In this document: one piece after another, positions 26,856 through 31,220 of the stretch | Position numbering within the stretch: the first letter of the stretch is position 1 | How the letters are laid out: each line of letters opens with the position of its first letter | Source: Nitrososphaerota archaeon | GTDB taxonomy: Archaea; Thermoproteota; Nitrososphaeria; Nitrososphaerales; CADDZS01 | Direction: 5' to 3' | NCBI GenBank assembly: GCA_027886795.1 | Contig: JAPCJU010000002.1 | Location: 1 to 34,017 of the forward strand | DNA: 34,017 nt | Made by a program: the position numbers and the translations under genes | Notes under the pieces: model-generated | Told to the model about the DNA's origin: nothing | The model's input: the letters and a program-made list of their open reading frames with translations, nothing else | The model's database searches: none

Positions 26856-27137
26856 TTAACCCGAGAAAGTGTGCGAGTATAGAGTGGTCGGCGCTGACCG
26901 ATTAGCCCACTTTTGAGGATCGTAGACGACTTTCATTCCTTTGTGTTTCTGACATAACTTTTGAGTCATAATTTGGGAGTCTATGGCGTTTTCGATATAC
27001 TCCCTTTGTAGGCGATTGGGCTCCAGAAAGTTCTTGGGGTCATGTGCGAGACCGGTTCCGACCCCCGTCAGGTTAACGAACAGCGAGACAAGACTATAAT
27101 CAAATCGCCATCTGAATCCATCTTCCTTAACTTCCAT
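26856..27137 (-). CDS. Small unknown protein, translationally overlapped with the E1-like gene
   Basis: 93-aa ORF whose ATG overlaps the upstream stop (ATGGAAGTTAA). Confidence 0.5.
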   Translation of the reverse strand: MEVKEDGFRWRFDYSLVSLFVNLTGVGTGLAHDPKNFLEPNRLQREYIENAIDSQIMTQKLCQKHKGMKVVYDPQKWANRSAPTTLYSHTFSG

Positions 27138-28617
27138 ATTTCGTCGTCATGATGTTGGGCAGGGAAGGATCTGAACATAGATAACAAGAGCGTAATCTAG
27201 ACCGTTCGATCCAATCATGTTCTGTCGGATTTCTCAGAATCGATGATTGCCAAAATCCTGCATCGGACCGAAATCCTAAAAGCTCACGGGTCAGTTCGAC
27301 AAAGCCTGCAAGACCAGAAAGACCGCCTGCAAAAACAAGAGGAACATCCGCTTCCGATATTGAATTTGGCAGGGAAATCTTTGTTGTAGCGCAAAGGAGG
27401 GCACGGACAGTGCGCAATGGTCTTCCCAACACTGAGCTCTTTTCCAACCCAAATTTTTGACAAATAGCGGATGCCTCCCTCTCGTCTAGCGGTGTCCCCA
27501 GAAGAAAGAGTTCCCTGATTCTCCACGGCAGAAAAATATCATCAATTCTTGTTTGCTCGTAAAATTCTCCGACTTCATCTAGTTTCCCGGAAGTGTCAAG
27601 AGGGTGAACGCAAAACATGCATGGCCAATTGCCATCGAACTTGTACCTCGAAGATCCTAAAGCGTCTTGAGATGTCCACATATTCACGATCGTATGTGGT
27701 AGTTTGAGCTGGAGCTGTCTGCGGTCTTCGATCGAATCCAGGCCTGCGACTGCGATATTCATCTTGCAATTCGGTCTTACCGAAGCAAAATAGTTGTTCA
27801 TGTCTTTGTCGAAAGTTGAGATTGATAATTTGGACTTGGATGCGATGAGCCTGTTGGATAGTGTCTTAGTTTTATACGCGGTTACGTCAGAGTCGCGCAT
27901 TCCTATGTAACGTTGACCATTTGACTGATCGTATTTGTCGTGATCAATCAAACTAATTTCGCCTTCTACATTACCAGGCCATCTTTGAAGTATCCACATC
28001 AATGCATGGGTTACGGTTCCGTTTCCGAAGAAATTCGTGTCTACAAATTTGAGTTCCGAGTACGAATGCGGTGGAGGCGCTCCTGTTCCCCGATACCACG
28101 CGCTCCAATGATACTCTCTCGGGACAGCAGCATCGATTTTGAGAGCACTTGCAAATAACGATCTGAACAATTGGGCAGAAGCTAGACATGCAGCTGCAAA
28201 TGGTCCGACGGGATTAGGGTCTCTGCCGATCTCGCCATATTCTCCGATAGAGACCTCCCAACCATTTGCGCCAACCTGTATGCCAGGAGATCTATCAGGG
28301 ATTTTCGTGCCAATTGAAATTAGAAAGTCATATGGAGGAGACCAGTTGTCATTCGCGTTAATCGTTTGTTTGCCCGAGTTGGCGGCTGCTATAGCGGTTT
28401 CAACGAAAATCTTGCTGTACGGGCCTCTAACATCCAGATTATTCCATAGTCTACCTAGCATCTCTGCCAGTGCTTCTGTCAGGACTGCAGCGGAGACTAC
28501 CCCAGACAATTCCGGCGTGATTACACCGATACGTTTGGTCGCTAATTCCACGCAAAGGGCTTCATTCCCAGTTAGTTGTTTCAACGCAGTCTGATTTTTT
28601 CTAGATGCTTCACTCAT
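27127..28617 (-). CDS. ThiF/E1-like ubiquitin-activating enzyme
   Basis: LKFVDTNFFGNGTVTHALMWIL...GEISLIDHDKYDQSNGQRY matches the ThiF Rossmann D-x-D...SN..R signature. Paired Cys WPCMFCVHP and RSCYLCSDP look like a zinc site. In operon with Ubl, E2-like and JAMM genes. Confidence 0.8.
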   Translation of the reverse strand: MSEASRKNQTALKQLTGNEALCVELATKRIGVITPELSGVVSAAVLTEALAEMLGRLWNNLDVRGPYSKIFVETAIAAANSGKQTINANDNWSPPYDFLISIGTKIPDRSPGIQVGANGWEVSIGEYGEIGRDPNPVGPFAAACLASAQLFRSLFASALKIDAAVPREYHWSAWYRGTGAPPPHSYSELKFVDTNFFGNGTVTHALMWILQRWPGNVEGEISLIDHDKYDQSNGQRYIGMRDSDVTAYKTKTLSNRLIASKSKLSISTFDKDMNNYFASVRPNCKMNIAVAGLDSIEDRRQLQLKLPHTIVNMWTSQDALGSSRYKFDGNWPCMFCVHPLDTSGKLDEVGEFYEQTRIDDIFLPWRIRELFLLGTPLDEREASAICQKFGLEKSSVLGRPLRTVRALLCATTKISLPNSISEADVPLVFAGGLSGLAGFVELTRELLGFRSDAGFWQSSILRNPTEHDWIERSRLRSCYLCSDPSLPNIMTTKYGS

Positions 28618-29099
28618 GAAACCATCCTGAACCTCCTTTTCGTTTCACGTTTGTTCCAGAGTCGCCAATTGCTTCCCTCCTTCTCATAGATGCTCAAACC
28701 AAAGAGGTCTCGCATTCCATTCTTACCGTAATCCGGAACGATTATGCTAAGGGCACCCTGGTGATCCGCCACCGCCCATCTTCGGTCGAGTGAAGAAATC
28801 GTGGTGTTTTTGCCTGGGTGAGAGTGAACTTGTGCAACACTTCTTTCGTCGCGCTCGTAATTAGCAAATGCGATTCTTCGCAGTTCATCTCCGCTGACAT
28901 GAACGTAGTTGCCTTCTGTTCCGCGGTGAGTGTCTTGAAAAGGAACGAGGCCAGATGTAACAACGTTCTTATCTTTTGGCTTTTTTATCGGACCCACCCA
29001 AAGGACGAAGACTTCACTTTCTTTGGAACGTAGAGCCTCTTCTGTTTCTTTGATCACCAAGTTAGAGATTTCCCACTTTGGTCGCTTAATCTCAGTCAA
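28614..29099 (-). CDS. JAB1/MPN (JAMM) metalloprotease, putative deubiquitinase-like
   Basis: Full JAMM motif: E (SEVFVLWVG) then QVHSHPGKNTTISSLD (HxH-x7-SxxD). Confidence 0.9.
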   Translation of the reverse strand: MTEIKRPKWEISNLVIKETEEALRSKESEVFVLWVGPIKKPKDKNVVTSGLVPFQDTHRGTEGNYVHVSGDELRRIAFANYERDERSVAQVHSHPGKNTTISSLDRRWAVADHQGALSIIVPDYGKNGMRDLFGLSIYEKEGSNWRLWNKRETKRRFRMVS

Positions 29100-29509
29100 G
29101 ACGATTGAACGCCACTCTTGTTTAGGTCAGATTGCAACTGCGTTATCAATCCGATAATATTGAAGCCTGAAGCGCGCAAGGCGGCCCACGAGATGGAATA
29201 GTGACTCTGATGATCGTGATATTCCCTCCATCCGGGAAAGCAGAACCAGGATTTTTCCTCTTTGTAGATATTCGGATTGAGCTGGAATCCTCCACCGTTT
29301 GGAATCACGTTCTGTCCTTTCAACAGAGGCTGATCCTTGGAGTCCACCCACCACCCCCGAGGCGCCAGGTAGTTATAGTTGTCGGATTGAACGTGCAGAA
29401 GGATTTCATTATTCTTTAGTTTCCAAGAAAGACCAACTATCAACATCGGAAATTCGGCTTTGACGAGGCGAATCCCCAAACTTTGAAACCGTTCAGGTTC
29501 GCCCGCCAA
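29096..29509 (-). CDS. Putative prokaryotic E2-like (UBC-like) protein
   Basis: Between Ubl and JAMM genes; single Cys in EEKSWFCFPGWREYHDHQSHYS; TTG start. The frame stays open upstream to the Ubl stop codon. Confidence 0.6.
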   Translation of the reverse strand: MAGEPERFQSLGIRLVKAEFPMLIVGLSWKLKNNEILLHVQSDNYNYLAPRGWWVDSKDQPLLKGQNVIPNGGGFQLNPNIYKEEKSWFCFPGWREYHDHQSHYSISWAALRASGFNIIGLITQLQSDLNKSGVQSS

Positions 29510-29578
29510 AGGAGCGACATCTTTCTCGAAACGAGCTTTGGAAAGCAGAGGATCTGTTACAAAGAATTGCGACAGATC

Positions 29579-29842
29579 TTACCCACCTCCGCCTTCTTTC
29601 TTTGTGAGTGCTAGGGTATCGTGGTTCTTTACGCCATTGTCTCTAAGCGAGATCGACGGATTGAGAGTATTTCCTCGGTCGCTGAGTTGGTATTGATTCC
29701 AGTCCTGTTTTTGTCCTGCGGGGAGAAGAGATTTGATGACTTCTTCCACCTTTTCGCCGGCAGGATAGTCTTTTTTCTCCGGCACGCCGTTTACAATGAT
29801 CGTGAGAGCCAGAATCTCTTCACTTGAGCTTACACTTTCCAA
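29579..29842 (-). CDS. Ubiquitin-like protein with mature C-terminal GGGG
   Basis: 87 aa: ILALTIIVNGVPEKKDYPAGEKVEEVIKSLL...QLSDRGNTLNPSISLRDNGVKNHDTLALTKKEGGGG*. Beta-grasp-like order; ends exactly at Gly. Confidence 0.82.
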   Translation of the reverse strand: MESVSSSEEILALTIIVNGVPEKKDYPAGEKVEEVIKSLLPAGQKQDWNQYQLSDRGNTLNPSISLRDNGVKNHDTLALTKKEGGGG

Positions 29843-29856
29843 GAATTTTCACCCCC

Positions 29857-30369
29857 TCATTGTACAACTATCTGTAAAGTCGTACTTGTCACAATGCCGC
29901 CATTCAAGAGAATTGCGACGATCACATTATACTTCCCGTTCGGAGCATCAGACGTTGAAACGTTGAAGTTAAGCTGAGCGCTGGTTCCTTGGTACGCGAG
30001 TGAGGGCACATTTTGAGGGTTGGGTGTTATCACGATGTTAGGCGTAGACGGGGAAACGATGGCCTGCGCGATAAGACCCGAATAAATGACGCTCTGATTC
30101 GTTGAAAAATTTTGAACATTGAAACTGAATCCAGCAGAACCGGTACTCCCAACGCTGATGGAGGTACCAATTAGACCTATGAATTCCCAAGACTTGTTAG
30201 TGATCGACATACACGCAGAGCCAGACGAGGGGCACGAAACATTGTCCGTCGCAATATATATTCCAAAAACCGTGACTAGAATAAGCACAATCGATACGAC
30301 TGCCCAGACCGCCCTAGATCGGGACGGATTTGATTGACGTTGACTAGTTGTTGCATAGTATGAGGTCAA
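29857..30369 (-). CDS. Single-pass membrane-anchored extracytoplasmic protein
   Basis: N-terminal TM (AVWAVVSIVLILVTVFGIYIA) then a beta-rich extracytoplasmic region; 14 nt upstream of the Ubl gene, same strand. Confidence 0.7.
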   Translation of the reverse strand: MTSYYATTSQRQSNPSRSRAVWAVVSIVLILVTVFGIYIATDNVSCPSSGSACMSITNKSWEFIGLIGTSISVGSTGSAGFSFNVQNFSTNQSVIYSGLIAQAIVSPSTPNIVITPNPQNVPSLAYQGTSAQLNFNVSTSDAPNGKYNVIVAILLNGGIVTSTTLQIVVQ

Positions 30370-30476: not shown

Positions 30477-31220
30477 GTGCCCCTTAGAAGTGTACTCATT
30501 CGGCTTGGTTGGAGTGATTCTGAAGTCAAGGTATTCACAGCCCTTTTAGAAAATGGACCTATGCAGGGTAAGGATCTTGCTTTGAAGGCTGATGTTCCAA
30601 AACCGCATGTCTATGGAGTCTTAGCACAACTCAAAACGAGAGGTGCAATAAAGGAGACAGGCAAACGACCTTTGATCTTCGCGGCTCAAAATCCTCGTGT
30701 TGTAATAAATTCTGGCGTTGACCAAGTAAAAGCCGATGCTGATGAAATATTGTTGGCAGCCGAGACGGCTTGGGAGACTGCCATGGAGAAAAAGATGCCT
30801 AATCTCGATATTGCTTGGACCCTGCATGGTCTCTCGGGATTCGTCACTGAATTTACTAGAATTTCAGAAGGTGCCAAGAAGTCGATATACATCGTCGACC
30901 GGGACTTGCAATGGTTGGGGCGACGACACAAGGAGACATTAATTCGATTGAAGAAATCAGGGGAAGTGAAAATTTTGAGTTCACATGATTATGAATCGGC
31001 CCTTAGTCAATTGCACGAAGAGAAGGTTGAAATAAAAGTCTCCAATGCTTTGAAGTGCGCTTTCTGCATTGTTGACGATCGGAGTTTGCTGATTCGTTTG
31101 GGCTCCTCCGACATCGCGGTCTACTTCCAAGATGAGTTTGTTGCGGATGCTCTGAAAGCTTCATTCAGTCGGATGTTTGAAGATGCAGAAAAGCTGCCGG
31201 TGAATGAGATTGTTAGCTAG
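30477..31220 (+). CDS. TrmB-family transcriptional regulator
   Basis: LIRLGWSDSEVKVFTALLENGPMQGKDLALKADVPKPHVYGVLAQLKTRGAIKETGKRPLIFAAQNP, TrmB wHTH plus C-terminal domain; GTG start. Confidence 0.85.
   Translation: MPLRSVLIRLGWSDSEVKVFTALLENGPMQGKDLALKADVPKPHVYGVLAQLKTRGAIKETGKRPLIFAAQNPRVVINSGVDQVKADADEILLAAETAWETAMEKKMPNLDIAWTLHGLSGFVTEFTRISEGAKKSIYIVDRDLQWLGRRHKETLIRLKKSGEVKILSSHDYESALSQLHEEKVEIKVSNALKCAFCIVDDRSLLIRLGSSDIAVYFQDEFVADALKASFSRMFEDAEKLPVNEIVS

What the first reader, a model, noticed from the sequence alone, without database searches (positions are those of the whole stretch)
29096..29842. Ubl and E2-like genes are one frame split by a single TAA immediately after GGGG
Starts 29842 and 29509 are 333 nt apart (111 codons), so they share a frame. 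After ...KKEGGGG-TAA the frame continues 23 sense codons as DLSQFFVTDPLLSKARFEKDVAP before the TTG-initiated MAGEPERFQS. There is no ATG, GTG or TTG in those 23 codons. The extension looks like genuine protein. Possibilities: TTG (or CTG) start, a nonsense mutation in an ancestral Ubl-E2 polyprotein, or readthrough giving a Ubl-E2 fusion that the JAMM protease would cut after GGGG.
Basis: partly seen in the sequence, partly recalled or inferred. Interest (0 to 1): 0.85.

Follow-up and report, generated by a model that had tools for sequence, protein, structure and literature searches.

The report
Archaeal BilB-type E2 with CTG start
An archaeon carries a bacterial-style ubiquitin-like tagging operon in which the tag gene ends normally and the next gene, the conjugating enzyme, most likely starts three bases later at an unusual CTG codon that gene finders miss; it is a gene-start curiosity and not a fused protein.

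Summary
On the minus strand, Ubl (...KKEGGGG-TAA) and E2 share a frame, and the 23 codons before TTG 29509 hold no ATG, GTG or TTG. They are genuine protein. The peptide TDPLLSKARFEKDVAP is the conserved N-terminus of BilB-type (CEHH, PF14455) E2s. It ranks first of 184,387 16-mers against a profile of homologues, aligns with the N-terminus of solved BilB 8TYZ, and is predicted to form helix alpha-1. TTG 29509 is therefore very probably not the start.

The polyprotein and readthrough ideas are not supported. In 17 junctions Ubl and E2 are always separate genes, 13 of them in different frames, with E2 starting within -14 to +20 nt of the Ubl stop in 15. The shared frame here is the one-in-three chance case.

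The best start is CTG 29575: 3 nt after the TAA, 8 nt after a perfect Shine-Dalgarno GGAGGTG lying in the GGGG codons, and placing Asp-Pro at residues 8-9 exactly as in BilB. CTG use is inferred, not shown. The operon (Ubl-E2-JAMM-E1) is an intact, divergent BilABCD-type operon in a Nitrososphaeria-class archaeon: a new member of a known kind.

The parts
29579..29842 (-). Ubl gene (BilA-like, single beta-grasp domain, 87 aa, TTG start, ends KKEGGGG-TAA)
   Evidence: Pfam DUF2604 PF10790 24.6 bits, just below the cut-off of 25; aligns with Ubls of homologous operons; Shine-Dalgarno-like GGGGGTGA before TTG 29842
29579..29581 (-). Ubl stop codon TAA
29584..29590 (-). Shine-Dalgarno match GGAGGTG inside the codons of the GGGG tail
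   Evidence: exact 7-nt complement of the anti-SD in GGATCACCTCCT of same-family 16S genes; about 45% of synonymous Gly4 encodings would give at least 7 nt
29573..29575 (-). CTG, proposed E2 start codon
   Evidence: only NTG codon in frame between TAA and the conserved Asp-Pro; 3 nt after TAA, 8 nt after the SD; gives D8-P9 as in BilB 8TYZ
29096..29575 (-). E2 gene (BilB-like, CEHH family), 159 aa from CTG
   Evidence: PF14455 37.1 bits; phmmer to 8TYZ chain C BilB E 2.2e-6; Foldseek to 8tz0_C E 7.6e-5
29510..29578 (-). 23-codon extension between TAA and TTG 29509, conserved E2 N-terminus
   Evidence: adds 14.5 bits to the E2 profile score
29501..29551 (-). predicted E2 helix alpha-1 (residues 9-25 from CTG)
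   Evidence: AlphaFold2 model, block pLDDT about 90
29507..29509 (-).
   Evidence: no SD of 4 nt or more; lies near the end of helix alpha-1; 69 nt after TAA
28614..29099 (-). JAMM/JAB protease gene (BilC-like), TTG start overlapping the E2 stop (TTGA)
   Evidence: PADLOC BilC E 4e-11; 8TYX BilC E 4.6e-11; E, HSH, SxxD retained; overlap
27127..28617 (-). E1 gene (BilD-like), ATG overlapping the JAB stop (ATGA)
   Evidence: ThiF PF00899; 8TYZ chain A BilD E 2.1e-24 over residues 99-495; overlap

Best explanation
The locus is an intact BilABCD-type operon (Ubl, CEHH E2, JAMM protease, E1). Ubl and E2 are two separate proteins. Ribosomes finish the Ubl at TAA 29581, are held by the Shine-Dalgarno GGAGGTG that lies in the codons of the Ubl's own GGGG tail, and reinitiate at CTG 29575, 3 nt past the stop, giving a 159-residue E2 (MSQFFVTDPLLSKARF...). 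Shown by computation: the extension is the conserved E2 N-terminus, and Ubl and E2 are separate genes in homologues. Inferred: initiation at CTG, reinitiation coupling, and the Ubl being made with a mature end so that the JAMM enzyme mainly deconjugates.
For: Homologues from rhizobial plasmids, Bacteroidota, Ignavibacteria and Nitrososphaeria share the N-terminal motif VDPxVSRxKFxxE, with E2 starting 1-9 residues before its Asp/Gln/His. The window motif ranks 1 of 184,387, and E2 scores 72.0 bits with the extension against 57.5 from TTG. phmmer aligns the extension to residue 6 onward of BilB 8TYZ, whose chain starts MPELQTVDP; CTG gives MSQFFVTDP, so Asp-Pro is at 8-9 in both. AlphaFold2 places helix 9-25 there with pLDDT about 90, and Foldseek's best hits are BilB. 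E2 starts lie -14 to +20 nt from the Ubl stop in 15 of 17 junctions. Reinitiation in Haloferax and E. coli is nearly abolished at about 20 nt (PMC10666635): CTG is at 3 nt, TTG 29509 at 69 nt. SD at CTG is 7 nt, at TTG none. Other junctions of this operon also overlap and use non-ATG starts: TTGA for E2/JAB, ATGA for JAB/E1, TTG for Ubl.
Against: CTG is a rare, weak start in prokaryotes (general knowledge), and no archaeal measurement was found in the library. The SD is not independent support, since about 45% of synonymous Gly4 encodings would give 7 nt or more. No close relative with the junction was found: 8 other genomes of the family lack the E2. The MAG sequence at CTG cannot be checked against reads. 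A +3 gap is less usual than -4 or -1.
Confidence: 0.78

Rival explanations
1. The E2 start signal has been lost by mutation, or misread in this MAG, so E2 is poorly made or starts at another non-standard codon in the same 8-codon stretch.
For: No ATG, GTG or TTG in the stretch; one MAG, 70% complete in 214 contigs; a second archaeal homologue (L004) also lacks a canonical start, with only ATA or ATT on offer.
Against: All four ORFs are intact, the JAMM residues are kept and the E1 aligns over 400 residues with BilD, so there is no sign of decay. CTG sits at the expected place with an SD.
Confidence: 0.12
2. E2 starts at TTG 29509 and this lineage has a shortened E2.
For: It is the first ATG/GTG/TTG codon in the frame.
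Against: It removes the conserved N-terminal motif and nearly all of helix alpha-1; no SD; 69 nt from the stop, too far for coupling by PMC10666635. Neutral sequence upstream would not be expected to rank 1 of 184,387 against the homologue profile.
Confidence: 0.06
3. Occasional readthrough of TAA gives a Ubl-E2 fusion that the JAMM protease cuts after GGGG.
For: The frame is open through both genes apart from the TAA. An archaeal JAMM (Rpn11) can cut a ubiquitin-GFP fusion after GG (PMC5654768).
Against: 13 of 17 junctions are in different frames and another has a second stop in frame, so a fusion is not a conserved device. The archaeal readthrough reviewed involves UGA and UAG, not UAA (PMC8211752).
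Confidence: 0.03

Closest known systems
BilABCD operons with a single DUF2604-type Ubl and a CEHH E2 (solved BilB/BilD/BilC: 8TYZ, 8TZ0, 8TYX; type 6c of Iyer et al. 2006, PMC1779556)
   Same: Gene order Ubl-E2-JAMM-E1; CEHH residues at the same spacing (+6, +8, +13); E2 N-terminal motif; E1 similar over about 400 residues; tightly packed genes
   Different: Archaeal host, E2 about 20% identical to relatives in the alignment; Ubl ends GGGG with no tail; E2 start codon CTG instead of ATG/GTG/TTG; 3-nt gap instead of overlap
Two-Ubl, ISG15-like BilA type of Bil operon (described in PMC11354881)
   Same: Four-component cascade
   Different: This Ubl has one domain only
Caldiarchaeum-type archaeal ubiquitin operon (PMC5654768)
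   Same: Archaeal Ubl conjugation operon with JAMM protease
   Different: [quoted passage not shown] no RING gene was identified in this operon, and E2 here is of the CEHH type
Poly-Ubl operons in which, in some species, the Ubl is fused to an inactive E2-like domain (PMC1779556)
   Same: Ubl next to an E2-like fold
   Different: Real fusion with an inactive E2; here separate genes and all four CEHH residues present

Membership tests
BilABCD (single-Ubl, CEHH E2 type) | Four adjacent genes Ubl, E2, JAMM, E1 on one strand | tested here: met
BilABCD (single-Ubl, CEHH E2 type) | E2 with CEHH residues spaced C, +6, +8, +13 (C138, E144, H146, H151 in BilB, PMC11354881) | tested here: met
   C112, E118, H120, H125 counted from CTG
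BilABCD (single-Ubl, CEHH E2 type) | E2 (UBC-like) fold as in BilB | tested here: met
   Foldseek 8tz0_C E 7.6e-5, TM 0.67/0.73; the model is weak (pLDDT about 50 or below) around the CEHH loop
BilABCD (single-Ubl, CEHH E2 type) | JAMM protease with E, HxH, SxxD | tested here: met
   BilC similarity
BilABCD (single-Ubl, CEHH E2 type) | E1 with ThiF domain and downstream Cys | tested here: met
   PLRTVRALLC aligns with BilD PLRSFYQQAIC; catalysis not tested
BilABCD (single-Ubl, CEHH E2 type) | DUF2604-type Ubl | tested here: inconclusive
   PF10790 24.6 bits against a cut-off of 25; aligns with homologous Ubls
BilABCD (single-Ubl, CEHH E2 type) | Conjugation and antiviral activity | not testable with these tools
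   needs biochemistry and infection tests
ISG15-like two-Ubl BilA type | Two tandem Ubl domains in BilA | tested here: not met
   87-aa protein with one domain
Ubl-E2 polyprotein or readthrough fusion | Common frame and absence of an E2 start conserved among homologues | tested here: not met
   13 of 17 junctions out of frame; 15 of 17 have ATG, GTG or TTG

The most novel reading that the evidence does not exclude
The codons of a ubiquitin-like protein's glycine tail serve at the same time as the ribosome-binding site of its E2, and reinitiation at a deliberately poor codon (CTG here, ATA or ATT in a Nitrosopumilus-type relative) holds E2 well below Ubl. This would be a stoichiometry device built into the diglycine motif, recurring in archaeal Bil-type operons.
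Probability: 0.15. Interest if true: 0.55.

Novelty: new member of a known kind. Interest (0 to 1): 0.33.

Why it matters
It corrects the reading of the locus: no polyprotein, and a gene start that standard callers would place 22 codons too far downstream, cutting helix alpha-1 off the E2. It also adds intact Bil-type Ubl conjugation operons in Nitrososphaeria-class archaea (the window and six further genomes with a related E2), for which no report was found in the library searched. If CTG initiation is confirmed, two archaeal Bil-type E2 genes with non-canonical starts would suggest that E2 dosage is deliberately low.

Tried and rejected
Readthrough or polyprotein: rejected from the frames of 17 junctions. 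TTG 29509 start: rejected. Out-of-frame GTG 29586 inside the SD: opens a very short frame only, read from the sequence. SD as decisive evidence for CTG: rejected after finding that about 45% of synonymous Gly4 encodings give at least 7 nt. Viral contigs and phage records: no homologue. Same-family genomes: no homologue, so no close-relative test of the start codon. The window's own 16S gene was not found; the anti-SD comes from two same-family genomes. The NCBIfam library gave nothing for Ubl, E2 or JAB.

Full report
Observation. The minus strand from 29842 reads TTG-ESVSS...KKEGGGG, TAA (29581-29579), then DLSQFFVTDPLLSKARFEKDVAP and TTG 29509 (LAGEPERFQS...), ending at TGA 29096. The shared frame and the absence of ATG, GTG and TTG in the 23 codons are real. 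The second codon after TAA is CTG (29575). The GGGG codons GGC GGA GGT GGG contain GGAGGTG (29590-29584), a perfect 7-nt match to the anti-Shine-Dalgarno sequence found at the 16S 3' end of two genomes of the same family (GGATCACCTCCT).

What the genes are. E2 matches Pfam PF14455 Metal_CEHH (37.1 bits), Ubl matches DUF2604 just below its cut-off, and E1 matches ThiF. PADLOC finds BilC and BilD. By sequence the closest solved proteins are BilB (8TYZ chain C, E 2.2e-6), BilD (8TYZ chain A, E 2.1e-24) and BilC (8TYX, E 4.6e-11). The E2 has C112, E118, H120 and H125 (counted from CTG), the same spacing as C138, E144, H146 and H151 reported for BilB (PMC11354881). The JAMM residues are kept, and the Cys-containing E1 segment aligns with BilD. 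Iyer et al. had listed rhizobial operons of this type as 6c, with a component described only as predicted metal-binding (PMC1779556). The operon shows no sign of decay.

Is the extension protein? Homologues came from the window's class, GTDB genomes and rhizobial plasmids. In the first alignment an Asp in the extension is invariant among five archaeal E2s. tblastn and phmmer matches to relatives mostly begin at residue 7-10 of the extension-bearing protein. A profile of 15 homologous N-termini, built without the window, scores TDPLLSKARFEKDVAP 18.3 bits, first of 184,387 16-mers from 170 kb of the genome. The whole-protein profile gives 72.0 bits with the extension and 57.5 without it. AlphaFold2 on ten sequences puts a helix at residues 9-25 (block pLDDT about 90), and Foldseek's best matches are BilB chains. 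The catalytic loop is modelled poorly (pLDDT about 50 or below). A protein starting at TTG 29509 would lack nearly all of this helix, which in E2 enzymes is an E1- and E3-facing element (general knowledge, not tested here).

Polyprotein or readthrough? In 17 junctions, the window included, Ubl and E2 are separate genes. Four are in the same frame (window, L005, L009, L032), about the one third expected by chance, and L032 has a second stop in that frame. The other 13 could not give a fusion by readthrough. E2 starts are ATG (9), GTG (4), TTG (2) and non-canonical (2: CTG in the window; ATA or ATT in L004/L016). These starts are my reading of the junctions; several agree with deposited annotation. 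E2 starts lie between -14 and +20 nt of the Ubl stop in 15 junctions and about 100 nt away in two. Ubl tails vary from none (GRGG, GGGG) to about ten residues, and some lack GG. So the ancestral state is most simply two closely packed or overlapping genes, not a fusion.

Where does E2 start? CTG 29575 is the only NTG codon between TAA and the conserved Asp-Pro. It lies 3 nt past the stop, 8 nt past the SD, and puts Asp-Pro at positions 8-9, as in BilB (MPELQTVDP against MSQFFVTDP). Termination-reinitiation in Haloferax and E. coli is nearly lost at about 20 nt (PMC10666635), so a coupled start at TTG 29509 (69 nt away, no SD) is unlikely. The SD must not be over-read: with this genome's Gly codon usage, about 45% of synonymous encodings of GGGG would give a match of 7 nt or more. 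A glycine tail tends to make a Shine-Dalgarno for free. CTG initiation remains an inference without proteomic or reporter data. A lost start or a sequencing error cannot be excluded.

Function. From membership: E1 adenylates the Ubl C-terminal Gly, passes it to Cys112 of E2, E2 conjugates it to targets, and the JAMM enzyme deconjugates. Because the Ubl ends at GGGG without a tail, no maturation cleavage may be needed; this is inference. Bil operons are described as antiviral in bacteria (general knowledge); function in this archaeon is untested.

Taxonomy. The genome (1.36 Mb, 214 contigs, 70% complete) is unnamed. Homologous loci found in its class by the genome search coincide with contigs titled Nitrososphaera, Nitrosopumilus and Thaumarchaeota (L002/L013, L004/L016, L005/L017), so the class is taken to be Nitrososphaeria by inference.

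Noticed in passing
L004 (G104), Ubl-E2 junction near 1490-1510; same as L016: E2 of a Nitrosopumilus-type relative also lacks ATG, GTG and TTG between the in-frame stop and the conserved Asp; only ATA or ATT near-cognates are available.
   Followed up: partly
L037 (Rhizobium sp. K102 plasmid pRSpK102f) 2404-3037: E2 is frameshifted near residue 30 relative to R. etli CFN 42 (L036); the annotated E2 starts downstream of the break and lacks the conserved N-terminus.
   Followed up: partly
L019 (Bradyrhizobium barranii plasmid pBb1S5b) 2574-3119 and 3079-3432: The Ubl appears to change frame before its EGGGG-TAATG end, so the annotated Ubl overruns into E2 and the annotated E2 begins about 28 residues too late. 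L009 (Chitinophagales) shows a similar frame change inside its Ubl.
   Followed up: partly
window 26856-27137 (-): A 93-aa ORF with ATG overlapping the E1 end by 11 nt, no Pfam match; possible fifth operon member.
   Followed up: no
window 29857-30369 (-): A 170-aa protein with a hydrophobic N-terminal segment ends 14 nt upstream of the Ubl TTG and may be co-transcribed.
   Followed up: no
window 30477-31220 (+): TrmB-family transcription regulator upstream of the operon on the opposite strand (54 bits to PF01978).
   Followed up: no
L032 and L033 (genomes of the same family as G104): A second archaeal subtype: Ubl ends GTEQQVG without a diglycine, and about 100 nt with an A/T-rich stretch separate Ubl and E2.
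   Followed up: no
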